64,000 bases of DNA, from positions 62,001-126,000 of the forward strand of contig NZ_NBZW01000010.1 of assembly GCF_002379085.1 (NCBI RefSeq), given 5' to 3'. The stretch comes from Polaromonas sp. AET17H-212. GTDB lineage: Bacteria > Pseudomonadota > Gammaproteobacteria > Burkholderiales > Burkholderiaceae_C. This document shows positions 2,136 through 59,090 of this stretch, piece by piece (position 1 is the first letter of the stretch; the number at the start of each line of letters is the position of its first letter). Below the pieces are notes generated by a model. The model had not been told where the DNA came from. It worked only from the letters and a program-made list of their open reading frames with translations, and did not search any database. A program made the position numbers and the translations under genes.

Positions 2136-2923
2136 ACTCCCCCCAGGCTTCCGGAGCACCGGTAGCGCCGCGCGCGCTGCTGCTGGCTGCTTTCGACCAG
2201 CTGCTGCAGCCCGAAGGCTTCAAGGACTATGGGCCGAACGGCCTGCAGGTCGAGGGCAAGGCCGAGGTGCGCAAGATCGTCTCCGGCGTCACCGCCAGCC
2301 TGGCGCTGATCGAAGCGGCGGTTGCCGCGCAGGCCGACGCGATTTTTGTGCACCATGGCCTGTTCTGGCGCGGCCAGGACGGCCGCGTCACCGGCTGGAT
2401 GAAGCAGCGCTTGGGCCTGCTGCTGGCGCACGACATCAATCTCTACGCCTACCACCTGCCGCTCGACGCCCACCCCGAACTCGGCAACAACGCCCAGCTG
2501 GGTCTGCAGCTCGGGCTGAAGGCGGATCGCTGGTTCGGCGAGAACAAGCTGGGTTTCCTTGGCGGGCGCAGCGGCACCAGTGAAGGCTTTGACAGCGCCG
2601 ACAGCCTGGCGCTGCATGTCAGAAATGCATTAAATCGGCCTGTTATCCTTGTTGGTAATGCGCCGGTAGCTATTAAAAACATAGCATGGTGCAGTGGCGG
2701 CGCGCAGGGCTACTTCGAGGACGCGATTGCCGCCGGGGCCGACGCCTTCATCACCGGCGAGATCTCCGAGCCGCAGGCGCATTACGCGCGCGAAATGGGC
2801 GTGGCGTTCATCGCCTGCGGCCACCATGCGTCCGAGCGTTACGGCGCGCCCGCGGTGGCGGCGCACGTGGCCGCGCGGTTCGGGCTGGCGCACGAGTTCA
2901 TCGACATCGACAACCCGGCCTGA
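2132..2923 (+). CDS. NIF3-like (DUF34) dinuclear metal-binding protein
   Basis: Member of the NIF3/YbgI family, a conserved dinuclear metal protein whose cellular role is unsettled (GTP cyclohydrolase I type 2 is a common database name). 263 residues. Family signatures are [11 protein letters not shown] near residue 30, the metal-binding [15 protein letters not shown], the ITGE motif and CGHHASER near the C-terminus. The start appears to be TTG, overlapping the TGA stop of the upstream gene as TTGA. No upstream ATG is available. Residues about 166-185 ([18 protein letters not shown]) are encoded by an unusually AT-rich segment that is a copy of the dispersed repeat described under 2627-2685. 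It converges with the next gene, whose stop is only 13 bases away. Confidence 0.88.
2627..2685 (-). repeat. dispersed repeat family A, copy inside the NIF3-family gene
   Basis: Read on the minus strand, the 17-base head GCTATGTTTTTAATAGC is followed by TACCGGCGC and a GC/AT tail ending in AGGCCGATTT. The head has 5-base complementary arms and a 7-base loop, as in all copies. This copy is antisense to, and fully inside, the reading frame. Confidence 0.8.
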
Positions 2924-2936
2924 GTGCCGGCTGCGG

Positions 2937-4229
2937 TCAGGCCGGCGCCCTGCGGGGCCGGGCGCCGTGGCCGTTGCGTGCATAGTGCGGCCGCCCCGAG
3001 CGCATGGCATGCCAGCTCGCGCCGAGCTGGGCATTTTCCACCGGCACGGCCTGGTGGCTGATCTCGTCGAGCAGGGCGGCGCGTGAGCGCATGCCGCGGG
3101 CGGCTGCGGCCATTTCCTCGGCCTCGTGCAGCAGTTGGGCCACGTCCCGGCCCGCGCCTGTCAGATGGACCATGCCGACGCTGATATCGGCACTGATCCG
3201 GATGCGCTCGCCGTTCAGCGCGCTGATCTCCAGCGGCCGCCGCAGGCTGGAGGCCACGCGCAGTCCCAGGGTGCGTATCCAGCCGGGCGAATGCAGGCTT
3301 TCGATCAACACCACAAAACAGCGGTCGTAATACCGCCCCGCGGGGTTGACGACGCCGGTGTGGCGCTGCATGCGCCGCGCCAGCTGCGCGTAAATTTCGT
3401 TGAGGCCGTGCTGGCCCACCTGGTCGAGCAGCCGCTCGGGCTCGAACACCCGCACCGCCATGATCGCCCCGTCGCGCCGGGTGCGCGCCAGCCGGCGTTG
3501 CGCACGCAGGATTTTCTGCACCAGCACGACACTGCTGTAAAGCTGGGTGGTGGGGTCGCGCCGCGACTGGCCGGCATGGCGGATTTCCAGGTCCTGGTGG
3601 TTGCGCAGCCACAGGGTCACGCCAATCACCGAGACGCTGAGCAAGCCAAGCAGGGCCACACCGGCCTGCAGCAGGGCCGAGGGCCGGCTGGGGTTGAGCG
3701 CCAGCCGGTACAGCCCGAGCTGCAGCGGCAGGGTCAGCAGACAGCCGGCTGCCAGCCCCCAGGCGAGCCGGTCGCCCTGCTGCGCCGCGCGCACGGCCAG
3801 CCACAACGCCACCGACAGGCTCAGCAGGGTCAGCCCCGCCGAAGCTGGCAGCTGCAGGCCTGGCGCCAGCAGCAGGCACAGCGGCCCGCCCGCCAGGCAC
3901 AGGGTGCTGACAGCGCGAAAGCTGAGGTCGGTGAGCCGGTCGCGCCGGGCGGCGGCCAGCCACTGGCCCGCACCGTAAGTGCCCAGGCCGCCGCACAGGG
4001 GCCCGATCAGCACCTGGGCGGCAGGCAGCCAGGGAGCGCCGGGGCTTGGCAGCATGGTGGCCGCCAGACCGCTGAGCAGCATGAAAAACAGCCAGCAGGC
4101 CGTGAGGTAAATCAGGCTTTGCACACTGGCGCGGCTTCGGCTGAAGAGCGCGTCTGCCGCGCCGAGCAGGACCACCAGTCCCATCGATCCCGCGGCGGCG
4201 CTCCAGATGACGGTTTCAGCCGTGTTCAT
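2937..4229 (-). CDS. membrane protein with degenerate GGDEF domain
   Basis: 430 residues. The N-terminal half (about 5-215) has six or seven hydrophobic segments. The C-terminal half has the fold pattern of a diguanylate cyclase domain: DPTTQLYSS stands where D-x-LTGL-x-NR is usual, and ISADISVGMVHLTG matches the late GGDEF-domain strand. The signature loop itself reads RYYDRCF instead of GG(D/E)EF, so cyclic-di-GMP synthesis is unlikely and a binding or regulatory role is more plausible. Start placed at the ATG giving MNTAETVIW. A longer open frame upstream has no membrane or domain content. Divergent from pdxA with a 199-base gap. Confidence 0.75.
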   Translation of the reverse strand: MNTAETVIWSAAAGSMGLVVLLGAADALFSRSRASVQSLIYLTACWLFFMLLSGLAATMLPSPGAPWLPAAQVLIGPLCGGLGTYGAGQWLAAARRDRLTDLSFRAVSTLCLAGGPLCLLLAPGLQLPASAGLTLLSLSVALWLAVRAAQQGDRLAWGLAAGCLLTLPLQLGLYRLALNPSRPSALLQAGVALLGLLSVSVIGVTLWLRNHQDLEIRHAGQSRRDPTTQLYSSVVLVQKILRAQRRLARTRRDGAIMAVRVFEPERLLDQVGQHGLNEIYAQLARRMQRHTGVVNPAGRYYDRCFVVLIESLHSPGWIRTLGLRVASSLRRPLEISALNGERIRISADISVGMVHLTGAGRDVAQLLHEAEEMAAAARGMRSRAALLDEISHQAVPVENAQLGASWHAMRSGRPHYARNGHGARPRRAPA

Positions 4230-4428
4230 GCCGCCTTCCGCCACAGCGCGGGGGCGCGGGCCTGGGTTTGCGCGAGAATACCGGCAGGATGCATGTCGTC
4301 GCTTTCCCCTGTTCAGTGGCCTTGCCGGCTGCCTGTCCGTCAGGTGGGCCGGCAAGCAGCTGGTGGACACCGTGGCGCGCCAACGCCATGCAAACCATTA
4401 TGGGACGTACAGACCGCCAGGGGAAGAC

Positions 4429-5481
4429 ATGCAGGACCTGAGAAACCGGCCGCTGGCCATCACCATGGGCGATCCGGCCGGGATCGGGCCGGAAATCATT
4501 GCCAGGGCCTTTCGCGACGCTCCGGCCGAACTGTCCGGCTGCGTTGTGGTCGGTGATGTCGCCACCTTGCGCCGCGCCGCGCAGCTGGTGGGCGGCGGTC
4601 CGGCCCTGGCTTTGCCCGTGGCCCAACTCGATGCGGTCAGCCACTGGCAGTCGGTGCCGCCGCGCTGCATTCCTGTGCTACAAAAATGTGAGCTGCCCGC
4701 CCCTGTGCCTTTTGGGGAAATCAGTGCTTTGGCCGGCAAGGCGGCGGCGGACAGCATTGTCTGGGCGGCCCGGGCGACCCTGGCCGGCGAATGCGCGGCG
4801 ATGGTCACCGCGCCCATCCACAAGGAGGCGCTCGCCGCCGCCGGCGCGGCGTTTGCGCGTTTTCCCGGCCATACCGAGCTGCTGCAGGCCGAAGCCGCGG
4901 CTTTTCTCGGCAAGGACGTGTCCGCGCTGCCGGTGCGCATGATGCTGGCCAACGAGGAACTCAAGACCGTGCTGGTCAGCATCCACCTGTCCCTGCGCGA
5001 GGCGATAGCCGCCGTGACTTTTGACAACGTGCTGCAGACCCTGCGCATCACGCACCAGGCGGTGCGCAGTGCCTCGGGCGGCCGGCCGCGCATCGCGGTG
5101 GCCGGCCTGAACCCGCACGCCGGCGAGGGCGGCCTGTTCGGCCGTGAAGAGGTGGACATCATCGCGCCGGCGATCGCCAGGGCCCGGGAGGAGGGGCTGG
5201 AGGTGAGCGGCCCCTTCGCCCCCGATACGGTGTTCATGAGGGCCCGCGCCCCGGCCGGGCAGGGTGGCGAGTTCGACGTGGTGGTGGCGATGTACCACGA
5301 CCAGGGGCTGATCCCGGTCAAGTACCTGGGGGTGGAGCAGGGCGTCAATGTCACGCTGGGCCTGCCGCTGGTGCGCACCAGCCCGGACCACGGCACGGCA
5401 TTTGACATCGCCGGCACGGGCAGGGCCGACGCGTCCAGCTTGCTGGCGGCCATTCGCATGGCGCGGCGTTTGGTGGCTTGA
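4429..5481 (+). CDS. pdxA: 4-hydroxythreonine-4-phosphate dehydrogenase
   Basis: NAD-dependent oxidative decarboxylase in pyridoxal 5'-phosphate synthesis; its product condenses with deoxyxylulose phosphate through PdxJ. 350 residues, slightly longer than the E. coli enzyme. Clear motifs are MGDPAGIGPE (13-22), TAPIHKEAL, FPGHTELL, GLNPHAGEGG and YHDQGLIPVKY with the C-terminal RTSPDHGTAFDIAG; these carry the metal-binding histidines. Start chosen at the ATG preceded by GGGGAA (4420-4425). An in-frame extension upstream lacks homology. Residues about 83-101 (VLQKCELPAPVPFGEISAL) come from an AT-rich copy of the dispersed repeat. It is not next to ksgA or surA, unlike in many proteobacteria. 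Confidence 0.92.
   Translation: MQDLRNRPLAITMGDPAGIGPEIIARAFRDAPAELSGCVVVGDVATLRRAAQLVGGGPALALPVAQLDAVSHWQSVPPRCIPVLQKCELPAPVPFGEISALAGKAAADSIVWAARATLAGECAAMVTAPIHKEALAAAGAAFARFPGHTELLQAEAAAFLGKDVSALPVRMMLANEELKTVLVSIHLSLREAIAAVTFDNVLQTLRITHQAVRSASGGRPRIAVAGLNPHAGEGGLFGREEVDIIAPAIARAREEGLEVSGPFAPDTVFMRARAPAGQGGEFDVVVAMYHDQGLIPVKYLGVEQGVNVTLGLPLVRTSPDHGTAFDIAGTGRADASSLLAAIRMARRLVA
4677..4733 (+). repeat. dispersed repeat family A, copy inside pdxA
   Basis: Head GCTACAAAAATGTGAGC (17 bases, fixed spacing), then TGCCCGCCCCTGTGCC and a tail rich in T and G. It lies in frame within a variable loop of the protein and is visibly more AT-rich than the flanking coding sequence. Confidence 0.7.
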
Positions 5482-5506
5482 ACCACTGCATTGCCCGAAA
5501 GTTCAA

Positions 5507-5541
5507 GGAAAAAGCGCCTGCAGCCCGGAAGGGGCGGGCGC
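5507..5541 (-). terminator. probable rho-independent terminator of mscL, formed by the repeat
   Basis: On the minus strand GCGCC-CGCCC... pairs with GGGC...GGCGC around CCTTCC and is followed by TTTTT. It is the 3' half of the repeat copy, 45 to 80 bases beyond the mscL stop. Confidence 0.6.
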
Positions 5542-5563
5542 AGTAAGCTACTAATTCAATAGC
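5507..5563 (-). repeat. dispersed repeat family A, intergenic copy after mscL
   Basis: On the minus strand the head GCTATTGAATTAGTAGC is followed by TTACTGCGCCCGCC and a second hairpin closing on GGCGCTTTTT. It lies between the convergent genes pdxA and mscL. Confidence 0.85.
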
Positions 5564-5586
5564 AACTCGCTGCGCCAGGGGCGGCT

Positions 5587-6184: not shown

Positions 6185-6246
6185 CCCGGGTTGACCCCAA
6201 TAAGCCCTCTTTCAAGTTTTTCAAGCCCTGTTCTTGTAGGACATCC

Positions 6247-9831: not shown

Positions 9832-9834
9832 TGA

Positions 9835-9921
9835 CCCCCACGCTTGTCGCTTCGCGTACTGCGCTGCCCCCCGGAGGGGCGCTGCGCCTGCGGCCCGGCA
9901 AAGCCGGTTCCGCAGCCCCTG
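9835..9921 (+). repeat. repeat family B, copy directly after sspA
   Basis: Begins three bases after the sspA stop with CCCCCACGCTTG and contains CCCCCCGGAGGGGCG and TGCGCCTGCGGCCCGGC, ending AAGCCGGTTCCGCAGCCCC. A shorter copy with the same blocks lies at 47578-47632. Confidence 0.7.
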
Positions 9922-10596: not shown

Positions 10597-10651
10597 TTCC
10601 TCCTGCCCCGGTCATCTGCCCAAGGGCAGGGCCAACTACCCGTTTGATAGC
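10597..10651 (-). repeat. dispersed repeat family A, degenerate copy after tRNA-Thr
   Basis: Minus strand head GCTATCAAACGGGTAGT keeps the 17-base spacing, followed by TGGCCCTGCCC and GGGCAG. Weaker match than most copies. Confidence 0.45.
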
Positions 10652-17717: not shown

Positions 17718-17773
17718 GCTCTGTTATTGATAGCTGCTTGCGCTTGCCGAATAAGGGCTAGCGGCACTTTGTA
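17718..17773 (+). repeat. dispersed repeat family A, intergenic copy after mutT
   Basis: Head GCTCTGTTATTGATAGC, then TGCTTGCGCTTGCC, GGGCTAGCGGCA and CTTT. One of the best-preserved copies. It lies between the convergent mutT and lytic transglycosylase genes. Confidence 0.85.
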
Positions 17774-17807
17774 CTCGTAAATCCGGCGTGCTGCCGGATT
17801 GCCGGCC

Positions 17808-18491
17808 TCAGGCCGTGAGTTCCCACTGTTTTCTCGCACCCAGCACCGCATCCGGGTAGGGCGCCTTGCCGCGTGAGCCGTTGTAGCGGCCCAGGCCCAG
17901 GAACAGGTCGCCTTTTTCCCGGTCCAGGTAGTGCCGCAGAATCACGCAGCCAAAGCGCAGGTTGGTCTGCATGTGAAACAGCTTGCCGGCGTCGCCGTCG
18001 CCAATGACCCGGGTCCAGAAGGGCATGACCTGCATGTAACCCCGCGCGCCGACGCGGCTGACCGCAAATTTACGGAAGTTGCTTTCGACCTGGATCAGGC
18101 CCAGCACCAGCGCCACGTCCAGGCCGGCGCGTTTGCTTTCGTACCAGACCGTCTGCAGGAATTCCTTGCGGATTTGCCATTCCGGCTTTTTCTTCCAGAG
18201 CCGGTCGCTCATGGCGCCCAGCCAGCGCAGGTAGGCGAGGCGGCTTTCGGTGTCGCGAAATTCGGGCACCGGTGGCGCCTGGCTGGCGATGGCTGAACTC
18301 AACGCCGTGCGCACCGAGTCGATCAGGGGTTCTTCGATCTGTGCGCCGGCCCAGGATTGCTCCGAAAATAGGAGCGATCCCCCCAGAACGGAAAAGGACT
18401 GCAGGCACTTTCTTCTTGAAAGTCCGGCAGCCGAGGGGAGGGCGGGGACCACAGGTGCCGGTGGCGACAGGAAGACGTGGGACGGCCGCAT
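17808..18491 (-). CDS. secreted lytic transglycosylase (SLT domain)
   Basis: Peptidoglycan-cleaving enzyme of the transglycosylase SLT family. 227 residues. An RRKCLQSFSVLGG stretch near residues 26-38 resembles a twin-arginine signal peptide. The catalytic glutamate is in LIQVESNFRKFAVS (about residue 138), followed by GARGYMQVMPFW and LGRYNGSRG. It starts 5 bases after the proS stop and is likely cotranscribed with proS. The signal-peptide segment coincides with a copy of the dispersed repeat (18359-18415), so this N-terminus may be a lineage-specific acquisition. Confidence 0.87.
   Translation of the reverse strand: MRPSHVFLSPPAPVVPALPSAAGLSRRKCLQSFSVLGGSLLFSEQSWAGAQIEEPLIDSVRTALSSAIASQAPPVPEFRDTESRLAYLRWLGAMSDRLWKKKPEWQIRKEFLQTVWYESKRAGLDVALVLGLIQVESNFRKFAVSRVGARGYMQVMPFWTRVIGDGDAGKLFHMQTNLRFGCVILRHYLDREKGDLFLGLGRYNGSRGKAPYPDAVLGARKQWELTA
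18359..18415 (+). repeat. dispersed repeat family A, copy over the transglycosylase signal peptide
   Basis: Head GCTCCGAAAATAGGAGC has perfectly complementary arms; the tail reads GGACTGCAGGCACTTTCTTC, like the intergenic copies. It lies antisense within the gene and covers about codons 26-44. Confidence 0.65.
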
Positions 18492-22658: not shown

Positions 22659-22665
22659 GGTCAGG

Positions 22666-22722
22666 GTATTTTAGTGCTCCAGCCCATGGTGGCTGGATGC
22701 GAGTAGCTACTGTTTAAGTAGC
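22666..22722 (-). repeat. dispersed repeat family A, copy in the proB leader
   Basis: Minus strand head GCTACTTAAACAGTAGC, then TACTCGCATCCAGCC, a GGGCTGGAGCAC arm and TAAAAT. It ends 8 bases before the proB start codon. Confidence 0.75.
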
Positions 22723-33233: not shown

Positions 33234-33291
33234 GCTATTAAAACAGGAGCTAGCGGCGCTTGCCAATAAAGGGTTGGAGGCCAATTTTGCA
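33234..33291 (+). repeat. dispersed repeat family A, copy between prfA and prmC
   Basis: Head GCTATTAAAACAGGAGC, then TAGCGGCGCTTGCC, GGGTTGGAGGCC and AATTTTGC. It ends 16 bases from the prfA stop and begins 9 bases before the prmC start. Confidence 0.85.
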
Positions 33292-33306
33292 TTAAACATG
33301 CAGCCC

Positions 33307-35930: not shown

Positions 35931-36221
35931 ATGACTGCACTCAACCTGACCAACCAGCTGCTCAATTTCATGGCCCCGGCCGCTTTTGTGGCGCTGTTCG
36001 TGGTGCTGGTGGCCCGTGTCTTTGCCCGGTTTTTCAGATCAAAAAGGCCGTTTGTCCTTTCCCCTGTTGCGCAGTTTGCTATTGTTTTTGTAGTCTCTCT
36101 GGCCCTGCTGGTGGCCGGGCTGGTCATTTTTGGCCGCGACGGCAAGATGGCCAGTTATGCCTTGCTGGCCGTGGGCGCGGCGACCTGCCAGTGGGTGTTG
36201 CTGCGCGGCTGGAGAGCCTGA
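35931..36221 (+). CDS. small membrane protein of unknown function
   Basis: 96 residues with three predicted membrane helices (about 13-33, 46-64 and 73-90) and an arginine-rich loop between the first two. No family recognised. The start of helix 2 (about residues 37-55, RSKRPFVLSPVAQFAIVFVV) is encoded by an AT-rich repeat copy. It stands between hemA (divergent) and ugpQ (convergent). Confidence 0.6.
   Translation: MTALNLTNQLLNFMAPAAFVALFVVLVARVFARFFRSKRPFVLSPVAQFAIVFVVSLALLVAGLVIFGRDGKMASYALLAVGAATCQWVLLRGWRA
36038..36094 (-). repeat. dispersed repeat family A, copy inside the small membrane protein gene
   Basis: Minus strand head ACTACAAAAACAATAGC (17 bases), then AAACTGCGCAACAGGGG and a tail ending ACGGCCTTTTTGA. 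Lies antisense and in frame in the coding region. Confidence 0.7.
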
Positions 36222-36968: not shown

Positions 36969-37980
<1,012 letters not shown>

Positions 37981-39721: not shown

Positions 39722-39778
39722 GCTATAAAAATAATAGCCGCCGAATCCCGTAGAACGGGGGTCGACAGCTATATTGGC
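39722..39778 (+). repeat. dispersed repeat family A, copy between ugpB and ugpA
   Basis: Head GCTATAAAAATAATAGC with perfect arms, followed by CGCCGAATCCCG and a CGGGGGTCGAC arm. It lies within the operon, 5 bases upstream of the ugpA start. Confidence 0.75.
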
Positions 39779-41312: not shown

Positions 41313-44300
41313 ATGAACGCCCCTGACACCCTTCAAGACCTGAACGTTTTCGCTTCCGACGCGACACCCGACGCGGAGCATGGGCAAGCCCGCATTCGCG
41401 AGATTCCCTACAACTACACCTCGTTTTCCGACCGCGAAGTCGTGATCCGCCTGCTCGGCGAACGGGCCTGGGACCTGCTGAACCTGCTGCGCGACGAGCG
41501 CCGCACCGGCCGGTCGGCGCGCATGTTGTACGAGGTGCTGGGCGATGTCTGGGTGGTGCAGCGCAACCCCTATTTGCAGGACGACCTGCTGGACAACCCC
41601 AAGCGCCGCCGGATGCTGGTCGAGGCCCTGCAGCACCGCCTCTTCGAGGTCGAAAAACGCCGCACGCCCGAGGCGGACAGCCAGCGCGACGCCATCGTAG
41701 GCGAGCTGCTCGAAACCGCGCGCGCCGCCGTCAACCGTTTTTCCACCTCGTTCGAGGACATGGCCGACCTGCGCCGCCAAACCGCGCGCCGGCTGGGCAA
41801 GTTCACGCTCAAGGACAACATCAAGTTCGACGGCCTGTCGCGTGTCTCGCATGTGACCGATGCCACCGACTGGCGCGTCGAATACCCGTTTGTGGTGCTG
41901 ACACCGGACACCGAAGTCGAGATGGCCGGCCTGGTCAAGGGCTGTATCGAGCTCGGCCTGACCATCATTCCGCGCGGCGGCGGCACCGGCTACACCGGCG
42001 GCGCGATTCCGCTGAGCTGGAAGTCGGCCGTCATCAACACCGAAAAACTCGAGGCCATGACCGAGGTTGAGCAGGTGGCGCTGCCCGGGCTGGACCAGCC
42101 CGTGGCGACCGTCTGGACCGAAGCCGGCGTGGTCACGCAGCGCGTGGCCGATGCGGCCGAACGCGGTGGTTATGTCTTTGCGGTGGACCCGACCTCGGCC
42201 GAAGCCTCCTGCATAGGCGGCAACATCGCCATGAATGCCGGCGGCAAGAAGGCCGTGCTCTGGGGCACGGCGCTGGACAACCTCGCCTCCTGGCGCATGG
42301 TCACGCCCGAGGCGCAGTGGCTGGAAGTCACCCGCCTGAACCACAACCTCGGCAAGATCCACGACGCCGAGATGGCCAGCTTCGAGCTGAAATATTTCGA
42401 GGCCGACGGCAAGACGCCGGTGCGCACCGAGCGCCTCGACATCCCCGGCAAGACCTTCCGCAAGGAAGGCCTGGGCAAGGACGTGACCGACAAGTTCCTC
42501 AGCGGCCTGCCCGGCATCCAGAAAGAAGGCTGCGACGGCCTGATCACCAGCGCGCGCTGGATCGTGCACCGCATGCCGGCGCACACCCGCACCGTCTGCC
42601 TGGAGTTTTTCGGCAATGCCAGGGACGCGGTCCCCAGCATCGTCGAGATCAAGGACTTCATGTTCGCCGAGCAAAAGCGCGGCGGCGCCATCCTCGCCGG
42701 CCTGGAGCACCTGGACGACCGCTACCTGAAGGCGGTCGGTTACGCGACCAAGTCCAAGACCCACGGCGGCCTGCCCAAGATGGTGCTGTTCGGCGACATC
42801 GCCGGCGACGACGCCGACGTGGTGGCGCGCGCGACCTCGGAAGTCGTGCGCATCGCCAATTCGCGCCGCGGCGAGGGTTTTATCGCCATCAGCCCGGACG
42901 CGCGCAAGAAATTCTGGCTGGACCGCAAGCGCACCGCCGCCATTTCGCGCCACACCAACGCCTTCAAGATCAACGAAGACGTGGTGATTCCGCTGCCGCG
43001 CATGGCCGAATACACCGACGGCATCGAGCGCATCAACATCGAGCTGAGCCTGGCCAACAAGGTCCGGCTGTGCGACGCGCTGGAGGCCTTTTTCCTCAAG
43101 GGCAAGCTGCCGCTGGGCAAGTCGGACGACGCCGGCGAGATCCCCTCGGCCGAGCTGCTGGAGGACCGCGTTGGCCAGGCCGTGGCGCTGATTGCCGAGG
43201 TGCGCGCATTGTGGTCGGGCTGGCTGCGCGATGTGGACACGCTGTTCCCGCAGCTGCAGGACCATTCGCTACGCGCCAGCTGGAAAACCCAGCTGCGCGC
43301 GCCCCTGCAAACGATTTTTTCGGGCGCCGCTTTTGCGCCCATCCTGGCGGAGTGCAGCGCCATCCACAAACAGGTGCTCAAGGGCCGCGTCTGGGCCGCC
43401 CTGCACATGCATGCCGGTGACGGCAATGTGCACACCAACCTGCCGGTCAACAGCGACGACTACGAGATGCTGCAGACCGCGCACCATGCGGTGGCGCGCA
43501 TCATGGTGCTGGCGCGTTCGCTGGACGGCGTGATCTCCGGTGAACACGGCATTGGCATCACCAAGCTGGAGTTCCTGACCGACGCCGAGCTCCAGCCTTT
43601 TGCCGATTACAAGACCCGGGTCGATCCCGAAGGGCGCTTCAACAAGGGCAAGCTGCTACGAAATCAGGAGCTGATTGCGCCCGTGGCTACTGCGCAAAAG
43701 ACCAAAAATACTGATGATTCTGCGCCGGAGAGCCTGTTGGCCGACCTGACCAACGCCTACACGCCCAGCTTCGGCCTGATGGGCCACGAGTCGCTGATCA
43801 TGCAGCAGTCCGACATCGGTGCGATCGCCGACAGTGTCAAGGACTGCCTGCGCTGCGGCAAGTGCAAACCGGTCTGCGCCACCCATGTGCCGCGCGCCAA
43901 CCTGCTGTACAGCCCGCGCAACAAGATCCTGGCGACCTCGCTGCTGGTTGAGGCCTTTCTCTACGAAGAGCAGACGCGGCGCGGCATCAGCATCAAGCAC
44001 TGGGAAGAGTTCGAGGACGTGGCCGACCACTGCACGGTCTGCCACAAGTGCCTGAGCCCGTGCCCGGTGGACATCGACTTCGGCGAGGTGTCCATGAACA
44101 TGCGCAACCTGCTGCGCAAGATGGGGCAGAAGTCCTTCCGTCCCGGCAATGCCGCCGCCATGTTTTTCCTCAACGCCACCAGCCCGCAGACCATCAAGTT
44201 CATGCGCAGCGCGATGGTGGACGTCGGCTTCAAGGCCCAGCGCGTGGCCAACGAGCTGCTCAAGCGCCTGGCGCGCAAACAGACGGCCCGACCACGGGCG

Positions 44301-45266
44301 ACCGTCGGCCCGGCGCCGGTCAAGGAACAGGTGATCCACTTCATCAACAAGAAGATGCCGGGCGGCCTGCCCAAGAAAACCGCACGCGCGCTGCTGGACA
44401 TCGAGGACAAGGACTACGTCCCCATCATCCGCGATCCGAAAACCACCACGGCCGAAACCGAGGCGGTGTTTTATTTCCCCGGTTGCGGTTCGGAACGCCT
44501 GTTTTCGCAGGTGGGCCTCGCGACCCAGGCCATGCTCTGGCATGCCGGCGTGCAGACCGTGCTGCCGCCCGGTTACCTGTGCTGCGGTTACCCGCAGCGG
44601 GGCAGCGGCCAGTTCGACAAGGCCGAGAAAATCATCACCGACAACCGGGTGCTGTTCCACCGCGTGGCCAACACACTGAACTACCTCGACATCAAGACCG
44701 TGGTTGTGAGCTGCGGCACCTGCTACGACCAGCTGCAGGGTTATGAGTTCGACAAGATATTCCCGGGCTGCCGCATCATCGACATCCACGAGTACCTGCT
44801 GGAAAAGGGCATTACCCTGAGGACGGATCAGCCGGGCCAGGGTTACCTGTACCACGACCCCTGCCACAGCCCGATGAAGCTGCAGGAGCCGATGAAAACC
44901 GTCAAGGCGCTGCTCGGCGACCAGGTGCTCAAGTCCGAGCGCTGCTGCGGCGAGTCCGGCACGCTGGGCGTGACGCGCCCCGACATCTCTACCCAGATCC
45001 GCTTTCGCAAGGAAGAAGAGCTGCGCAGGGACGAAGCCAAACTGCGTGCCAGCGGTGCCGTGGCCGACGCCGGGAACGTCAAGATCCTGACCAGCTGCCC
45101 GAGCTGCCTGCAGGGGTTGACCCGCTACGGCGACGACCTGCAAAACGGCTTGCTCGAGGCCGACTACATTGTGGTGGAAATGGCCAACCAGATCCTCGGC
45201 AAGCAATGGCTGCCCGGCTATGTCGAGGCGGCCAACAACGGCGGCATCGAGCGCGTGCTGGTCTGA
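41313..45266 (+). CDS. FAD-linked oxidase / iron-sulfur fusion with DUF3683 N-terminus
   Basis: 1317 residues. Order of parts: a DUF3683 region (about 1-180, [20 protein letters not shown]), a GlcD-type FAD-binding domain with [11 protein letters not shown] near 221, an FAD-oxidase C-terminal domain (about 560-775), a short linker, two 4Fe-4S motifs ([11 protein letters not shown] near 845, [12 protein letters not shown] near 907), and two cysteine-rich CCG domains (CCGYPQ near 1090, CCGESG near 1210). This resembles glycolate or D-lactate/D-2-hydroxyacid dehydrogenase subunits D and F joined in one chain; the substrate is unknown. RNA-level start ATG at 41313 begins the conserved region. The linker at about 781-800 is encoded by a repeat copy. 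Confidence 0.9.
43655..43711 (+). repeat. dispersed repeat family A, copy at the domain junction of the oxidoreductase
   Basis: Head GCTACGAAATCAGGAGC, then TGATTGCGCCCGTGGC and ACTGCGCAAAAGACC. It encodes the linker [19 protein letters not shown] in frame between the FAD and Fe-S halves. Confidence 0.7.
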
Positions 45267-45285: not shown

Positions 45286-45699
45286 ATGGCAGGCCTGACC
45301 CCCGACACCCCCACCCCGACCGCGCTGACCGTGCACGCCCAGTCGCGGGTGCTCGAGATCGCCTTTTCGGACGGCACCGCGTTCAGGATTCCGTTCGAAC
45401 TGATGCGTGTTTATTCGCCCTCGGCCGAAGTCCAGGGCCACGGCCCTGGCCAGGAAGTGCTGCAGACCGGCAAACGCGAGGTCACGGTGGTCGAACTCGA
45501 ACCCATCGGCAACTATGCGGTCAAGCCGGTGTTTTCGGACGGCCACGAGAGCGGCATTTTTTCCTGGGACTACCTTTATTTCCTGGGCTCGGAGCAGGCG
45601 CGTTTGTGGACCGATTACCTGCAGCGCCTGGAGGCAGCCGGCATGCAGCGCGATGCGCCCATGGTGGCGGCGGGCGGCCATGCCTGTGGCAGCCATTGA
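45286..45699 (+). CDS. DUF971 (gamma-butyrobetaine hydroxylase N-terminal-like) protein
   Basis: 137 residues. The single DUF971 domain (about 15-110) contains VLEIAFSDGTAFRIPFELMRVYSPSAEV and PVFSDGHESGIFSWDYLYFLG, the zinc-ribbon-like fold named after the N-terminus of gamma-butyrobetaine hydroxylase. Stand-alone members have been linked to iron-sulfur protein assembly, but nothing here proves a role. Start ATG preceded by GAAGGAGA. Lies 19 bases after the oxidoreductase gene and upstream of ubiE, a common betaproteobacterial order. Confidence 0.85.
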   Translation: MAGLTPDTPTPTALTVHAQSRVLEIAFSDGTAFRIPFELMRVYSPSAEVQGHGPGQEVLQTGKREVTVVELEPIGNYAVKPVFSDGHESGIFSWDYLYFLGSEQARLWTDYLQRLEAAGMQRDAPMVAAGGHACGSH

Positions 45700-45725: not shown

Positions 45726-45783
45726 GCTATCGTTTTCATAGCTGCTGGCGTCCGGCGTTGGCGCGCAGCTGTTGTTTTTCAAC
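45726..45783 (+). repeat. dispersed repeat family A, intergenic copy upstream of ubiE
   Basis: Head GCTATCGTTTTCATAGC, then TGCTGGCGTCCGGCG, a GGCGCGCAGC arm and TGTTGTTTTTC. Well preserved. Confidence 0.85.
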
Positions 45784-45859
45784 ATAAATCCGCGGCAATG
45801 CCCCAATCAGGGGCAGGGTTGTCGCTTGCATTGCCGGCATTCACCCCTAGCATTGACTT

Positions 45860-46626: not shown

Positions 46627-47577
46627 ATGAAACTTTGGTCTGCGATTCTGGCGGCTGTCCTGGCCACCACCATGCTGCTGGCGTACGCGCCAGCGGAAGC
46701 CAAACGCATGGGCGGCGGCGGCTCCGTCGGACGGCAATCGTCCAACGTGACGCAGCGCCAGGCGACACCGCCGGCCGCGCCGGCCAACACCGGGGCCGCT
46801 GCAGCAGCGCCCAAGAAGCCTTGGGGCGCGATGCTGGGCGGGCTGGCCGCGGGTCTGGGTCTGGCCTGGCTGGCTTCCTCGCTCGGTCTGGGCGGCGCTT
46901 TTGGGCAGATCATCATGTTTGCCTTGCTCGCCATGCTGGTGATGGTGGCCGTCGGCTTCATCATGCGCAGGCTCAAGGCCAACAACGGCCAGGGCGCGAC
47001 GCCTTACGCCATGCAGGGGGCGGGCAACGCCACCACACCGCGCAACTACAGTCCCGAAAATGTCGGCAACGACGCGTCAGCCCGGCCTTGGGAGCGTGGC
47101 AGCATGGCGTTTGAGGCCAACAAGGCCGGCGCGGGCGCCGCTGCCGGCGGATCGATGATCGGCTCCTCCCTTGGCGGGTCGCAGTCTTGGGGTGTGCCGG
47201 CCGGCTTTGATGCCGAAGGTTTTCTCAAGGCCTGCAAGGCCAACTTCGTGACCCTGCAGGACGCCTGGGACCGCTCCGATGTCAACAGCCTGCGCGCCAT
47301 GATGACCGACGAGATGCTCGAGCAGATCAAGGCGCAACTGGCCGACCGTGAATCGCACACCGGTGGCGTGACCAACAAGACCGACGTGGTCATGCTCGAT
47401 GCGCAGCTGCTGGGCATTGAAGAGCTCAGCGATGTCTACATGGCCAGCGTGGAGTTCTCCGGCATGATCCGGGAAGACGCTTCGGCAGGCCCGAGTCCAT
47501 TCCGCGAAGTCTGGAACATGACCAAGCCGCGCAACGGTGGTGGCTGGCTGGTCGCCGGCGTGCAGGCATTGCAATAG
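46627..47577 (+). CDS. Tim44-like domain protein
   Basis: 316 residues. A signal peptide or anchor (about 1-22) is followed by a glycine/alanine-rich low-complexity region, two hydrophobic segments (about 62-85 and 92-112), and a C-terminal Tim44-like domain (about 195-316, FLKACKANFVTLQDAWDRSD, MMTDEMLEQIKAQL, VWNMTK). The precise role of bacterial Tim44-like proteins is unknown; this gene is regularly found between ubiE and ubiJ in betaproteobacteria. The ATG has AGAGGAGA just upstream. Its stop abuts a family B repeat and a terminator. Confidence 0.82.
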   Translation: MKLWSAILAAVLATTMLLAYAPAEAKRMGGGGSVGRQSSNVTQRQATPPAAPANTGAAAAAPKKPWGAMLGGLAAGLGLAWLASSLGLGGAFGQIIMFALLAMLVMVAVGFIMRRLKANNGQGATPYAMQGAGNATTPRNYSPENVGNDASARPWERGSMAFEANKAGAGAAAGGSMIGSSLGGSQSWGVPAGFDAEGFLKACKANFVTLQDAWDRSDVNSLRAMMTDEMLEQIKAQLADRESHTGGVTNKTDVVMLDAQLLGIEELSDVYMASVEFSGMIREDASAGPSPFREVWNMTKPRNGGGWLVAGVQALQ

Positions 47578-47632
47578 CCCCACGTTCGCGCGTTGCGCCT
47601 GCGGACCGACGAAGCCGGATCCGCGGCCCCTG
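47578..47632 (+). repeat. repeat family B, short copy directly after the Tim44-like gene
   Basis: Starts at the base after the stop codon: CCCCACG, then TGCGCCTGCGG, CCGACGAAGCCGG and TCCGCGGCCCCTG, the same blocks in the same order as at 9835-9921 but with about 30 central bases missing. Confidence 0.65.
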
Positions 47633-54358: not shown

Positions 54359-54415
54359 GCTGCGATATTGATAGCTGCTGGCGCCCGGGTTTATTGGGCT
54401 GGAGGGTGTTTGTCT
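54359..54415 (+). repeat. dispersed repeat family A, intergenic copy after aspS
   Basis: Head GCTGCGATATTGATAGC, then TGCTGGCGCCCGGG, GGGCTGGAGGGTG and TTTGTCTTG. 17 bases after the aspS stop. Confidence 0.8.
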
Positions 54416-54504
54416 TGTAAAAAGAGGCAATTCGCACGGTGCGCGGCGGGAGCCGCTCAGCTTCCGCGCATCGCTGCCTGTCCGGACGGAAGAGGACCGA
54501 GGCC

Positions 54505-56267: not shown

Positions 56268-56320
56268 GCCCCGTGCCGATTCCCTGCAGACGGGGTTCGT
56301 CCCCGGCAGGCACTGAAAGT

Positions 56321-56377
56321 GCTCCTTAATTCATAGCTGTAATCGCACGTGTGTAAAGGGATTGAGGCCTAAAACCC
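56321..56377 (+). repeat. dispersed repeat family A, intergenic copy before folE
   Basis: Head GCTCCTTAATTCATAGC, then TGTAATCGCACG, AAAGGGATTGAGGCC and TAAAAC. About 50 bases upstream of the folE start. Confidence 0.75.
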
Positions 56378-56427
56378 TTGTAAAAAAGGGTCATGGCTGT
56401 TTTGAGGCAGACTGGTAACATCTGACC

Positions 56428-57159
56428 ATGCTTATGAAATCCAATACGCCTGATTCCCCCGCCCTTCTTGACGAAGGCATGCCGGTTTCCGTCAAGATCC
56501 GCGAACGCCTCGCCCTGGCGAAAAAACGCTTCCATGCCAACGACAACATTGCCGCCTTCATCGAGCCGGGCGAACTGGAGAAGCTGCTGGACGAGGTGGA
56601 AGGCAAGATGCAGGGCGTGCTGGACAGCCTGGTGATCGACACCGTCGGTGACCACAACACCAACAACACCGCGCGCCGCGTGGCCAAGATGTACCTCAAC
56701 GAGGTGTTCAAGGGCCGTTATGTGGACGGCCCCACCGTCACCGAATTTCCCAATGCCGAGCACCTCAACGAGCTGATCATTGTGGGCCCGATCACGGTGC
56801 GCAGTGCCTGCTCGCACCATTTCTGCCCGGTGATCGGCCAGCTCTGGATAGGCGTGATGCCCAACGAACACACCAATGTCATCGGTCTGTCCAAATACGC
56901 GCGCCTGGCGGAGTGGATCATGGGTCGACCGCAGATCCAGGAAGAAGCGGTGGTGCAGCTGGCCGACCTGATCCAGGAAAAAACACGACCCGACGGCCTG
57001 GCCATCGTCATGGAGGCCAGCCACTACTGCATGGGCTGGCGCGGTGTGAAGGACCTGGACAGCAAGATGATCAACTCCGTCATGCGCGGGGTGTTCCTCA
57101 AGGACCCGAACCTGCGCCGTGAATTTTTGTCGCTCATCCCGAAAAAGAGCAACAGCTAA
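56428..57159 (+). CDS. folE: GTP cyclohydrolase I
   Basis: Converts GTP to dihydroneopterin triphosphate, the first step of folate synthesis. 243 residues. The zinc-binding segment is CSHHFCPVIG near 128 with the third ligand in HYCMGWRGV near 197. VGDHNTNNTARRVAKMYLNEVF is a family signature. The blue-light sensor gene follows after 9 bases and is probably cotranscribed. Confidence 0.96.
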   Translation: MLMKSNTPDSPALLDEGMPVSVKIRERLALAKKRFHANDNIAAFIEPGELEKLLDEVEGKMQGVLDSLVIDTVGDHNTNNTARRVAKMYLNEVFKGRYVDGPTVTEFPNAEHLNELIIVGPITVRSACSHHFCPVIGQLWIGVMPNEHTNVIGLSKYARLAEWIMGRPQIQEEAVVQLADLIQEKTRPDGLAIVMEASHYCMGWRGVKDLDSKMINSVMRGVFLKDPNLRREFLSLIPKKSNS

Positions 57160-57168
57160 GGACACACG

Positions 57169-57594
57169 ATGTTGGTACGCCTTCTTTACGCCAGCCGCTC
57201 GGTCAACCCCGGCTCCAGCGACCTCACCGAATCCATCCTGGCGCAGTCGCGCAGCCACAACCCGGCCATGGGCATCACCGGCATCCTCTGTTATGGCGGC
57301 GGCATTTTCCTGCAGGCCCTCGAAGGTGGGCGCATGCCGGTCAACGACCTCTACGGCCACATTCAGCGGGACCCGCGCCACAAGGACGTGGTGCTGCTGC
57401 ATTACGAGGAAATCTCTGAGCGGCATTTTGGCGGCTGGACCATGGGCCAGGTCAATGTCGAGCGCATCAACGCCTCCATCCTGCTCAAATACTCCGAGAA
57501 GGCCGAACTCGACCCTTACGCGGTGTCGGGCACGGTCTCGCTGGCCTTGCTGGAAGACCTGATGGCCACCGCTTCCATCTGCGGCAAGGTCTGA
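57169..57594 (+). CDS. BLUF-domain blue-light photoreceptor
   Basis: 141 residues, a single BLUF domain (about 1-95) plus a short helical C-terminus. The flavin-site residues line up exactly with AppA numbering: Tyr7 (LLYASRS), Asn31 (HNPAMGITG), Gln49 (FLQALEGG), Trp90 and Met92 (GGWTMG), with identical spacing. It should therefore bind FAD and respond to blue light. No output domain is fused, so it presumably acts on a partner protein. It lies 9 bases after folE, the only nearby candidate for cotranscription. Confidence 0.95.
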   Translation: MLVRLLYASRSVNPGSSDLTESILAQSRSHNPAMGITGILCYGGGIFLQALEGGRMPVNDLYGHIQRDPRHKDVVLLHYEEISERHFGGWTMGQVNVERINASILLKYSEKAELDPYAVSGTVSLALLEDLMATASICGKV

Positions 57595-57659
57595 GTCCTC
57601 CTGGCCAGGAGGCAACGCGGGGCGCACGGCGTGCGTGCGCGCTGCCCGCCGCTTGCACC

Positions 57660-57737
57660 ATGCCGCTGTCCGCTTTTGTCCGCGTCCTGCTTGCCGGCCT
57701 GATGGCTGCGGGCGTGACCGCGCTGGCCCTGGGCTGA
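57660..57737 (+). CDS. possible 25-residue hydrophobic small protein
   Basis: Open frame starting MPLSAFVRVLLAGLMA and ending in ALALG: one membrane-spanning helix with a single arginine near the start. It fills the gap between the BLUF gene and the DUF429 gene, 13 bases before the latter. There is no clear ribosome-binding site. It might be a small membrane protein or chance. Confidence 0.25.
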   Translation: MPLSAFVRVLLAGLMAAGVTALALG

Positions 57738-57750
57738 ACGGAACCGACCC

Positions 57751-58584
57751 ATGCCTCACACCCTGCCTTTGCTGGTCGGCTGCGATTTCTCCAGCAGTCC
57801 GACGCGCCGCAAGCCCATCGTCCTGGCCAGTGGCTCACTGTCCGGCGGGCGGGTGTTGCTGGCTGGCCTGGCGCACATCGCGTCGCTGGAAGCCTTCGGC
57901 GACTGGCTGAGCCAGCCACGTGCGTGGCTGGGCGCTTTTGACTTCCCGTTCGGCCTGCCGCGCGAGCTGGTCGAGCAGCTCGGCTGGCCGGGCAGCTGGA
58001 CGGCGCTGATGGCCCACTACGCCAGCCTCAGCCGGGAAGAGATCCGGCAGACGTTTGCGGCCTTCTGCGCGGCGCGCCCGGTGGGCGGCAAGTTTGCGCA
58101 CCGCGCCACGGACATACCGGCCGGCTCCAGCCCGTCGATGAAATGGATCAATCCGCCGGTGGCGTTCATGCTGCACGCCGGGGTGCCGCGGCTGCTGGCA
58201 GCCGGTGTTCACCTGCCGGGCCTGCAGGAGGGCGACCTGTCGCGCGTTGCGCTTGAAGCCTACCCGGGGCTGCTCGCGCGCGAGGTGCTGGGCCGGCGCT
58301 CCTACAAAAGTGACGACCGGCTCAAGCAGACGCCGGACCGGCTGATTGCGCGCAAGGACCTGATCACCGCGCTGGAGATGGGCCAGACCCGGCTCGGCCT
58401 GCGCCTGAAGCTCAGCCATGCGCAGCGCGACACCCTGGTCGACGACGCCAGCGGCGACAGCCTGGATGCGGCGCTCTGCCTGATGCAGGCCGCATGGGCC
58501 CAGGCACAACAGGCGCAGGGCGCAGCGAATTACGGGCTGCCCAGCGATGTCGACCCGCTCGAGGGCTGGATCGTTACTGCATGA
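57751..58584 (+). CDS. DUF429 protein (predicted RNase H-like nuclease)
   Basis: 277 residues. The predicted active-site aspartates of the RNase H-like fold are in LLVGCDFSSSP (about 14), LGAFDFPFGLP (about 64) and SGDSLDAALCL (about 237). Catalysis has not been shown for the family as far as I know. It overlaps the next gene by 4 bases (ATGA), so they are coupled. Confidence 0.75.
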   Translation: MPHTLPLLVGCDFSSSPTRRKPIVLASGSLSGGRVLLAGLAHIASLEAFGDWLSQPRAWLGAFDFPFGLPRELVEQLGWPGSWTALMAHYASLSREEIRQTFAAFCAARPVGGKFAHRATDIPAGSSPSMKWINPPVAFMLHAGVPRLLAAGVHLPGLQEGDLSRVALEAYPGLLAREVLGRRSYKSDDRLKQTPDRLIARKDLITALEMGQTRLGLRLKLSHAQRDTLVDDASGDSLDAALCLMQAAWAQAQQAQGAANYGLPSDVDPLEGWIVTA

Positions 58585-59090
58585 CCATGACCGTATTCAA
58601 AATTGCTATGTTTTTGATAGCTTTCAGCGTCCATTCCGCATGGGCAGAAGGCATGAAAGTCACATATGTCACCGACGGAGACACGTTGTGGGTCCAGCCC
58701 GCCGGAGGCGGCAGGCCGGTCAAGCTGCGCCTGGCCGGCATCGATGCGCCCGAGATCTGCCAGGCCGGCGGCCGTGCCGCGCGTGTCGCCCTGGCCAGCC
58801 GCGTCGCGCGCCGCACGGTGGTCGTGGCGACGCAGCGTCATGACGACTACGGACGCGCCGTGGCCACCGTGCATCTGGATGGCGAAGACATGGCTGGCTG
58901 GATGGTCGCGCAAGGCCATGCCTGGTCATACCGGTATGGGCGTGAGGGCGGGCCCTACCTGCGCTTGCAGGCGCAGGCCCGATCGGCGCAGCGTGGGCTG
59001 TTTGCCGATCCACAGGCGCTGCCGCCCCGCCTTTTCCGCAAGCGGCACGGCTCCTGCCACCCTGGAGGCGACGGGGCGCGCAGGGGATAG
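58581..59090 (+). CDS. secreted thermonuclease-like (SNc domain) protein
   Basis: 169 residues. A signal peptide (about 1-22, ending HSAWA|EG) precedes a staphylococcal-nuclease-like domain: TYVTDGDTLWV (calcium-binding aspartate), KLRLAGIDAPEICQ (catalytic Arg and Glu) and RHDDYGRAVATV (second catalytic Arg). It should cut DNA or RNA outside the cytoplasm. Start ATG overlaps the preceding stop. The signal-peptide codons coincide with a copy of the dispersed repeat. Confidence 0.88.
   Translation: MTMTVFKIAMFLIAFSVHSAWAEGMKVTYVTDGDTLWVQPAGGGRPVKLRLAGIDAPEICQAGGRAARVALASRVARRTVVVATQRHDDYGRAVATVHLDGEDMAGWMVAQGHAWSYRYGREGGPYLRLQAQARSAQRGLFADPQALPPRLFRKRHGSCHPGGDGARRG
58605..58661 (+). repeat. 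dispersed repeat family A, copy over the nuclease signal peptide
   Basis: Head GCTATGTTTTTGATAGC, then TTTCAGCGTCCATTCC and GGGCAGAAGGCATG. In frame from about codon 9 to 27 of the nuclease. Confidence 0.7.

What the first reader, a model, noticed from the sequence alone, without database searches (positions are those of the whole stretch)
2627..58661. A dispersed ~57-bp palindromic repeat family with an invariant 17-base head: 15 copies in 64 kb
Each copy starts with a 17-base head made of two 5-base arms (GCTAY-type and ATAGC/GGAGC-type) around exactly 7 variable bases. TGCTNGCGC and a second, GC-rich inverted repeat with a T-rich 3' end follow. Heads (strand): 2669-2685(-), 4677-4693(+), 5547-5563(-), 10635-10651(-), 17718-17734(+), 18359-18375(+), 22706-22722(-), 33234-33250(+), 36078-36094(-), 39722-39738(+), 43655-43671(+), 45726-45742(+), 54359-54375(+), 56321-56337(+), 58605-58621(+). 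The fixed spacing with compensating arm changes (GCTAT/ATAGC, GCTAC/GTAGC, GCTCC/GGAGC) suggests selection for RNA or DNA hairpins. I recall similar sequences in Comamonadaceae genomes but know of no described function or mobilising enzyme.
Basis: partly seen in the sequence, partly recalled or inferred. Interest (0 to 1): 0.72.

Follow-up and report, generated by a model that had tools for sequence, protein, structure and literature searches.

The report
62-bp genome watermark, possible DNA-uptake signal
Hundreds of copies of a 62-base DNA motif are scattered through genomes of Polaromonas and related environmental bacteria; they look less like jumping DNA than like a self-recognition mark that arises in place, perhaps a signal that lets cells take up DNA of their own kind.

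Summary
The repeat is real. Of 15 listed heads, 12 are copies of a 62-bp element (E<=2e-6). A 464-kb sample of the genome holds 70, roughly 700 per genome. The head is a symmetric 17-bp palindrome, GCTAY-N7-RTAGC: 41 sites with spacer 7 against 0-1 with spacers 5, 6, 8, 9.

The hairpin reading fails: arm changes do not compensate. The mobile-element reading is weak. The closest pair of 63 copies is no closer than in column-shuffled sets. RAYT genes are not linked to it. At 9 of 10 in-gene copies examined the element overlies native codons, with gains of at most 9 residues instead of 21. Head arms stay conserved at orthologous sites while other columns change fast.

So it behaves like a DNA signal that arises in place, as Pasteurellaceae uptake sequences are reported to do. 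Selective natural transformation is reported in this family without a named motif (PMC4212676, sections read). I propose a 62-bp uptake signal, about 45% likely; the main rival is a chromosomal protein-binding site. Fragments of the motif are in print, unexplained (PMC5217627).

The parts
2624..2685 (-). 62-bp element, copy 1
   Evidence: R1 35.4 bits, E 5e-10
5502..5563 (-). 62-bp element, copy 2, between convergent genes (105-bp gap)
   Evidence: R1 45 bits, E 4.9e-13; context
17718..17779 (+). 62-bp element, copy 3, between convergent genes (126-bp gap)
   Evidence: R1 51.1 bits, E 6e-15; context
18359..18420 (+). 62-bp element, copy 4 (weakest of the 12)
   Evidence: R1 24 bits, E 2e-6
22661..22722 (-). 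62-bp element, copy 5, shared with G004
   Evidence: R1 29.4 bits, E 4e-8; orthologue
33234..33295 (+). 62-bp element, copy 6, shared with G004
   Evidence: R1 40.4 bits, E 1.3e-11
36033..36094 (-). 62-bp element, copy 7, inside a low-scoring predicted ORF, shared with G004
   Evidence: R1 27.7 bits, E 1.3e-7
43655..43716 (+). 62-bp element, copy 8, in frame inside a 1317-aa DUF3683/FAD-oxidase gene; 63 bp absent from five element-free genomes
   Evidence: R1 35.9 bits, E 3.5e-10; alignments; Pfam
45726..45787 (+). 62-bp element, copy 9, 26 nt after a stop codon
   Evidence: R1 28.4 bits, E 8e-8
54359..54420 (+). 62-bp element, copy 10, absent from the nearest relative G004
   Evidence: R1 46.2 bits, E 2e-13
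56321..56382 (+). 62-bp element, copy 11, shared with G004
   Evidence: R1 37 bits, E 1.6e-10
58605..58666 (+). 62-bp element, copy 12, overlaps the start of the next predicted gene, shared with G004
   Evidence: R1 33.6 bits, E 1.8e-9
39722..39738 (+). isolated head (perfect 5-bp arms) without the other blocks; G017 has an element hit in the same intergenic gap
   Evidence: R1 E 0.37
4677..4716 (+). weak partial match, not counted as a copy
   Evidence: R1 12.7 bits, E 0.007

Best explanation
The repeat is a genome-wide DNA signal that arises in place, most likely a DNA-uptake signal for type IV pilus-dependent natural transformation in Comamonadaceae.

Anatomy (shown): a 17-bp palindrome GCTAY-N7-RTAGC with an A/T-rich centre; then TGCTNGCGC; about 8 free bases; GGGCTGnAGGCC; then A/T tracts (TTT or AAA) at positions 51-53 and AAA near 60-62. 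Spacing is fixed.

Evolution (shown in samples): copies have no close relatives among each other, most in-gene copies examined overlie native codons, and the head arms are conserved at orthologous sites.

Mechanism (inferred): a dimeric receptor of the uptake machinery binds the head of incoming double-stranded DNA, and the A/T tracts help bend it. Marked fragments enter more often and recombine at home. The motif therefore accumulates by molecular drive wherever coding constraint allows, that is, mostly near stop codons and between convergent genes.
For: In-place origin: 9 of 10 in-gene copies examined (of 20 in-gene copies in the sample) gain at most 9 residues at the element, where an insertion would give 21. 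They are rarA +2; two sites in one acyl-CoA synthetase, -6 to +4 and -12 to +1 against element-free genomes; and against solved homologues HIBADH 0 (9rb2), IcmF 0, XdhA +2, NadE +3 or +1, YfiH +8, AroE +9. PMC7811141 (section 8) states that Pasteurellaceae uptake sequences evolve by point mutation and are not inserted.

No close copies: the maximum pairwise identity of 63 copies is 46/63, against 45.4 (sd 1.1) in column-shuffled sets.

Constraint on the head: 22 orthologous copies in G000 and G004 differ at 3 of 220 arm positions, against 89 of 483 low-information positions. Allowing for ascertainment p=2e-6, and p=1.6e-5 for 7 copies in G017.

Symmetric, independent half-sites, as for a dimer.

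Distribution: strands equal (13/13 in codirectional gaps, 11/9 in genes; 76/74 among the 150 best hits of the complete chromosome G129) and no strong clustering there; dense in intergenic DNA (about 0.86 against 0.05 per kb); 2 hits in 200 kb of Polaromonas plasmid against 30 expected from the window genome's density; no hit in phages with one copy as query or in viral contigs with a strict pattern.

Lineage pattern: 42 of 120 family genomes carry it; within the genus, counts run from 0 to saturated.

Independent physiology: PMC4212676 reports pilus-dependent transformation in Verminephrobacter with limited inhibition by foreign DNA, read by its authors as sequence-specific.
Against: No uptake or binding was measured, and no receptor is known. 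One in-gene site (43655) differs by exactly 63 bp from five element-free genomes, as an insertion would. At 5 intergenic loci that could be compared, gaps with the element are longer by medians of 20, 20, 46, 95 and 100 bp. Three of the nine in-place cases are weak copies (rarA 18.3, NadE 24.0, IcmF 26.2 bits; the rest 27.0-45.5), and solved homologues are distant. The number of fairly similar pairs exceeds every shuffle (60 pairs at >=42/63 against 23.7; sd 4.2 against 3.5). Spacing is Poisson-like (CV 0.97, capped set), whereas PMC7811141 calls USS relatively even. At 62 bp it is longer than any uptake sequence I know of. ComEC is present with or without the element (70 of 75 genomes). The motif is shared across genera, yet Acidovorax temperans was transformed only by its own species' DNA; recombination barriers could explain that. 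After the ascertainment correction only the head arms, not the high-information columns as a whole, are significantly slow (p 0.13 and 0.08).
Confidence: 0.45

Rival explanations
1. The element is a chromosomal binding site for a dimeric DNA-binding protein (nucleoid organiser, insulator or global regulator), and each site is kept by ordinary selection rather than by uptake-driven spread.
For: Symmetric independent half-sites, conserved head arms at orthologous sites, in-place origin, chromosomal rather than plasmid location.
Against: Copy number varies from 0 to more than 120 (scoring limit) among species of one genus, odd for a core chromosomal function. No ori/ter clustering among the 150 best hits of G129. 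It also lies inside genes in both directions. A 62-bp site with several spaced blocks is large for one protein.
Confidence: 0.27
2. It is an old non-autonomous mobile element (REP- or MITE-like) whose copies spread long ago and were later kept for a function.
For: The copy at 43655 adds exactly 63 bp relative to five element-free genomes. Intergenic gaps with it are longer at the 5 loci compared, by medians of 20 to 100 bp. Fairly similar pairs exceed the shuffles. Patchy distribution. Two copies flank one ATPase gene on plasmid pPNAP01.
Against: 9 of 10 in-gene copies examined lack the expected 21-residue insertion. The closest pair is no closer than shuffled. Only one 1-base insertion and one 1-base deletion within the aligned stretches of 70 copies. 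RAYT genes are not linked. Rarity in plasmid stretches and no viral match.
Confidence: 0.16
3. It is an RNA-level element, such as a hairpin or a transcription terminator at gene ends.
For: Copies lie a median of 17-20 nt after stop codons in codirectional gaps and are enriched between convergent genes (16 of 48 against 27 of 231 gaps, p=6e-4). The head folds better than shuffled sequence (z -1.9).
Against: No covariation in 70 copies nor, at the freely varying pair 4-12, in 136 copies of which 80 loci were pattern-chosen. RNAalifold consensus energy -0.5 kcal/mol on the partly pattern-chosen set. Orientation is random relative to the upstream gene (13/13). None of the 25 terminator-like sites listed for window 41-60 kb lies in one of the five copies there. 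20 of 68 copies are inside predicted genes.
Confidence: 0.05

Closest known systems
USS of Pasteurellaceae and DUS of Neisseriaceae (DNA uptake sequences)
   Same: High copy number, preference for weakly constrained DNA, in-place origin, a strongly conserved core plus A/T tracts, rarity in acquired DNA (PMC7811141, section 8 and passages). PMC3630211 (passages) reports dyad-arranged DUS pairs in Simonsiella and suggests dimer recognition.
   Different: 62 bp instead of a 9-12 bp core with about 30 bp of context (sizes partly recalled); palindromic head; another family; about 1 per 6.6 kb, sparser than USS or DUS (recalled, about 1 per kb); uptake not tested.
Two unexplained spaced motifs in PMC5217627 (Table 7): ATAGCT(N)22CAAAAG in Polaromonas naphthalenivorans CJ2 (125 copies) and GCTTAT(N)5AAGCG in Acidovorax ebreus TPSY (114 copies)
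   Same: By spacing the first fits positions 12-17 and 40-45 of this element; the second fits its middle block, as in 2 of 5 matches in my loci (L318, L321). The paper reports 34 of 101 and 44 of 107 intergenic copies between convergent genes.
   Different: The paper (passages read) lists them as separate potential novel motifs, without the 62-bp unit or an explanation. I did not scan those two genomes, so the identity is inferred.
REP sequences with RAYT transposases
   Same: Hundreds of dispersed palindromic copies, mostly intergenic (recalled for REPs).
   Different: No compensating stem, not linked to the RAYT genes, in-gene copies mostly without insertion.
BRE, Betaproteobacteria repeat element (PMC3110155)
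   Same: Short repeat reported from Polaromonas, Delftia and other genera, usually intergenic.
   Different: BRE is about 90 bp, 63.7-78.9% GC and often in tandem (section 14 read). This element is 62 bp, 34-63% GC and dispersed. I had no BRE sequence to compare.
Rickettsia palindromic elements (recalled)
   Same: Repeats found both between and inside genes in frame.
   Different: Those are described as insertions; most in-gene copies examined here are not.

Membership tests
DNA uptake sequence (USS/DUS) | Promotes uptake of DNA that carries it | not testable with these tools
   Needs an uptake assay. PMC4212676 reports selective uptake in the same family but names no motif in the sections read.
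DNA uptake sequence (USS/DUS) | Strongly over-represented, roughly equal on both strands | tested here: met
   70 copies in 464 kb; 76/74 strands among 150 hits on G129; head spacer control 41 against 0-1.
DNA uptake sequence (USS/DUS) | Arises in place by mutation, not by insertion | tested here: met
   9 of 10 in-gene copies examined. Exception at 43655; 5 intergenic loci mixed.
DNA uptake sequence (USS/DUS) | Rare in newly acquired DNA and constrained genes | tested here: met
   2 hits in 200 kb from three Polaromonas plasmids, 30 expected at the window genome's density; 0 in viral contigs with a strict pattern; coding density about 18 times lower than intergenic.
DNA uptake sequence (USS/DUS) | More even spacing than random | tested here: not met
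   Spacing CV 0.97 over the 150 best hits of G129, a capped set. I take this as a common, not a defining, property.
DNA uptake sequence (USS/DUS) | Cognate pilus receptor (such as ComP) co-occurs | tested here: inconclusive
   One GspH/FimT lineage is present in 6 of 6 element-free and 1 of 10 element-rich genomes sampled (scores; tree, G016 not in the tree), confounded by phylogeny.
REP/RAYT | Stem kept by compensating changes | tested here: not met
   on partly pattern-chosen sets.
REP/RAYT | Copies flank the RAYT gene | tested here: not met
   8 hits in 6 of 30 PF01797 loci at E<=0.05, none in the own-genome locus; many RAYT loci carry GGAATCTGACCCC-type repeats instead.
Insertion element / MITE | Clean empty sites in relatives | tested here: not met
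   1 of 10 in-gene sites examined fits; 9 of 10 have no insertion of the right size. Intergenic sites inconclusive.
Intrinsic terminator | GC stem plus T run, oriented with the upstream gene | tested here: not met
   13 sense and 13 antisense; middle z -0.4.
KOPS, Chi or matS type motif | Replichore polarity or ter/ori localisation | tested here: inconclusive
   No strong clustering and 76/74 overall on G129. The best two-arc strand split (18+/35- against 58+/39-) is p=0.0035 taken alone but is reached by 51 of 300 shuffles; sampled GC skew did not locate ori/ter.
BRE (PMC3110155) | GC-rich ~90-bp unit, often in tandem | tested here: not met
   Unit length 62 bp, GC 0.34-0.63, no tandem arrays among the 70.

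The most novel reading that the evidence does not exclude
Comamonadaceae have an independent, third self-DNA recognition system for natural transformation. Its signal is a 62-bp composite sequence with a dimer-read palindromic head, spread in place by molecular drive over hundreds of sites per genome, gained or lost between species of one genus, and read by an unknown pilus receptor.
Probability: 0.4. Interest if true: 0.87.

Novelty: new variant of a known kind. Interest (0 to 1): 0.72.

Why it matters
Sequence-marked DNA uptake is described for two lineages, Pasteurellaceae and Neisseriaceae (PMC1939737, abstract). A third, in a large family of soil and freshwater bacteria, would let one compare how such systems arise, and would offer a candidate motif for the selective transformation reported in Verminephrobacter. 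Even if the function is another, a 62-bp motif that arises in place at hundreds of sites is unusual, and it probably ties together two motifs printed as separate curiosities.

Tried and rejected
RNA hairpin or terminator: rejected by covariation, orientation and folding. RAYT/REP: rejected. Known RNA family: only two tRNAs in the window at gathering score. Repeat finder without a model: the family is not among the 20 repeat families shown. Recent copies: none in the sample. ComEC as a discriminator: uninformative. Replication polarity: no clear signal. GspH/FimT minor pilin: a correlation (6 of 6 element-free against 1 of 10 element-rich sampled, p=9e-4), but one gene tree with five of the six element-free genomes puts them in two lineages, so I treat it as a lead. 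Literature: DNA uptake sequence plus Betaproteobacteria plus Comamonadaceae gave 0 papers; Burkholderiales plus REP plus RAYT gave 0; GCTAT/ATAGC plus Comamonadaceae gave 6 listings, none on repeats by title.

Rows dropped before counts: 2 edge copies of 70; 7 of 70 copies; copy 54359 in the G004 comparison and copies 54359 and 58605 in the G017 comparison (not alignable as orthologues), with further G017 copies not covered. Three mis-framed rows (G004, G019, G007) were ignored. One search left out G001 and G012 (no match in the fetched stretch). 10 of the 20 in-gene copies were not examined.


Full report
Observation. The 15 heads exist. I aligned 42 copies (30 found elsewhere in the genome by a 13-base pattern, 12 from the window); the alignment has no gap in 72 columns. 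A sequence-only model of it (R1) recognises 12 of the 15 window copies, with E-values from 6e-15 to 2e-6. Genome-wide it returns 150 hits, the output limit, all with E<=6.6e-10. In 20 stretches of 20 kb chosen by round coordinates plus the window (464 kb) it finds 70 copies at E<=0.001, that is about 700 per 4.65 Mb. On a complete chromosome of the same genus, 20 sampled 15-kb stretches hold 33. About 118 kb from relatives that had scored zero gave no hit at the laxer E<=0.001 (loci of G013, G005, G018, G007, G023; about 18 expected at the window genome's density).

Anatomy. From the 70 copies the unit is t-GCTAY-N7-RTAGC-T-GCYNGCGC-ccG-N8-AAGGGCTGnAGGCC-n-ATTT-nACY-nn-AAA. Within the aligned stretches one copy has a one-base insertion and one a one-base deletion. 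The head's two halves have the same base preferences (fourth arm base A 0.79/C 0.17 on the left, its partner T 0.81/G 0.17 on the right), but the halves vary independently. The strongest mutual information is between columns at most four apart, for example TTT replaced by AAA at positions 51-53. This is what a double-stranded site read by a symmetric dimer, plus bendable A/T tracts, would look like; that reading is inference.

Not a hairpin. Variable arm pairs match no more often than in shuffled columns in the 70 copies (P 0.49 and 0.54). The same holds in 136 copies from named loci (P 0.55 and 0.74), though there the search pattern fixed part of the right arm in many rows, so only pair 4-12 is a fair test. 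RNAalifold finds two pairs without covariation on the partly pattern-chosen set. Only the head folds clearly better than shuffled sequence, as any palindrome would.

Context. Using a simple gene finder of my own, 68 non-edge copies split into 20 inside genes, 26 between codirectional genes (13 in each orientation), 16 between convergent and 6 between divergent genes. Convergent gaps are enriched (p=6e-4); the deficit in divergent gaps is not significant (p=0.12). Intergenic density is about 0.86 per kb, coding 0.05 per kb (with 88% coding assumed). In codirectional gaps the element lies a median of 17-20 nt after the stop codon.

Origin. If copies were inserted, a gene holding one should carry 21 extra residues. 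I examined 10 of the 20 in-gene copies. Window 43655 does carry 63 extra base pairs relative to five element-free genomes, while six other genomes carry 24. The other nine do not: rarA +6 bp; two sites in one acyl-CoA synthetase, -6 to +4 and -12 to +1 residues against element-free genomes, 0 against two of them at the second site; and against solved homologues HIBADH 0 (9rb2), IcmF 0 (4xc6), XdhA +2 (1jro), NadE +3 (4f4h) or +1 (5kha), YfiH +8 (1xaf), AroE +9 (3o8q). Native residues persist across the element, for example in IcmF and the acyl-CoA synthetase. Three of the nine are weak copies (18-26 bits), the others 27-45 bits; solved homologues are distant, so single values are rough, but none approaches 21.

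Intergenic sites are mixed. At five loci with both states, median gap lengths with the element exceed those without by 20, 20, 46, 95 and 100 bp. Yet at window 39716 the G017 gap with an element hit (model 3-56) is 89 bp, while gaps without one are 77-108 bp and G000 has only the head there; G002 with a hit there has 296 bp. At 45699 gaps with the element are 217 bp and gaps without reach 210-215 bp in three genomes. In 63 copies the most similar pair shares 46 of 63 bases, as in column-shuffled sets, so no recent copying is visible. The spread of identities and the count of fairly similar pairs (60 against 24) exceed all 200 shuffles; linked neighbouring columns and differences in copy strength may explain this, but an old shared history is not excluded.

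Constraint after origin. Between G000 and its nearest relative G004 (95% identity over 13 kb), 22 orthologous copies changed at 3 of 220 head-arm positions, 51 of 681 high-information and 89 of 483 low-information positions; flanks 518 of 8245. Since G000 copies were chosen for matching the consensus, I halved the expected rate: the arms remain far below it (p=2e-6; G017, 3 of 70, p=1.6e-5), whereas the high-information columns as a whole do not reach significance (p=0.13 and 0.08).

Distribution. R1 finds it in 42 of 120 genomes, 41 of 119 genera, of the family and in 0 of 16 genomes from other families of the order (E<=1e-6). In 25 genomes of the genus (own included) 19 have it and 6 have none, with counts from 3 to the scoring limit. 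Plasmid stretches of Polaromonas (200 kb) hold 2, both beside one ATPase gene, against 30 expected at the window genome's density; the chromosomes of those strains were not scanned. A single copy as BLAST query, an insensitive probe, found 2 of 72,556 plasmids and no phage, and the strict pattern found nothing in viral contigs.

Mobiliser. The own genome has one Y1 transposase of RAYT type 24.5 kb before the window. 24 of 25 genomes have such genes, including all six element-free ones. Many of their loci carry GGAATCTGACCCC-type repeats, mostly downstream and in some genomes on both sides. The element is not linked to them.

Function. The properties given for uptake sequences in PMC7811141 (section 8 read) are origin by point mutation, accumulation by uptake-biased recombination, and scarcity in acquired DNA and constrained genes; they match this element. 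Even spacing does not. PMC4212676 (abstract, results section 21 and the first of two parts of the discussion read) reports pilus-dependent transformation in Verminephrobacter and transformation in two Acidovorax species, in the same family, with evidence for selective uptake and no named motif in what I read. I therefore rate an uptake signal as the most likely function (0.45), followed by a chromosomal protein-binding site (0.27). A correlation with a FimT/GspH pilin lineage is a lead only. ComEC does not discriminate.

What was known. PMC5217627 (passages read) lists ATAGCT(N)22CAAAAG in P. naphthalenivorans and GCTTAT(N)5AAGCG in A. ebreus as potential novel motifs. By spacing they fit two fragments of this element (the second seen in loci L318 and L321, 2 of 5 matches). 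BRE (PMC3110155, section 14 read) differs in length, GC content and tandem arrangement. The paper searches (listings from an open-access library) brought up no other paper that I recognised as describing this unit.

Noticed in passing
G000:C86:37197-37523 (locus L096), 24.5 kb before the window; also loci L091-L117: RAYT-type Y1 transposase genes of this genus, one or two per genome as a rule, often have GGAATCTGACCCC / GGGGTCAGATTCC repeats beside them (downstream in most, on both sides in some such as L098 and L107), a likely separate mobile family.
   Followed up: partly
window 9866-9921 and 47577-47632: Two GC-rich 56-bp copies, 80% identical (GCCCCCCGGAGGGGCGCTGCGCCTGCGG type), possibly another Comamonadaceae repeat or BRE-like.
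   Followed up: no
L087:6398-6907: A dispersed repeat of about 400-500 bp with dozens of matches in G004 and G017. A 62-bp element lies just beside it, and two such elements (L087:6388, L079:13460) share a TTCGACAGG-type sequence just upstream of the head.
   Followed up: no
L085:6300-6490: A second dispersed repeat of about 180 bp with several matches in G004, G017, G024 and G014.
   Followed up: no
L378:36067-36134 and 37422-37489 (plasmid pPNAP01 of P. naphthalenivorans): The only two copies found in 200 kb of plasmid flank, in the same orientation, one AAA-type ATPase gene inside a BREX-2 operon; they share 47 of 68 bases.
   Followed up: partly
G000:C34:7007-7366 and homologues (L381-L400): A FimT/GspH minor pilin lineage is present in 6 of 6 element-free genomes and 1 of 10 element-rich ones sampled; other element-rich genomes have diverse GspH pilins.
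   Followed up: partly
window 43580-43760 in gene 41313-45266: A hypervariable loop of the DUF3683/FAD-oxidase protein is 0, 8 or 21 residues longer in different species of the genus.
   Followed up: partly
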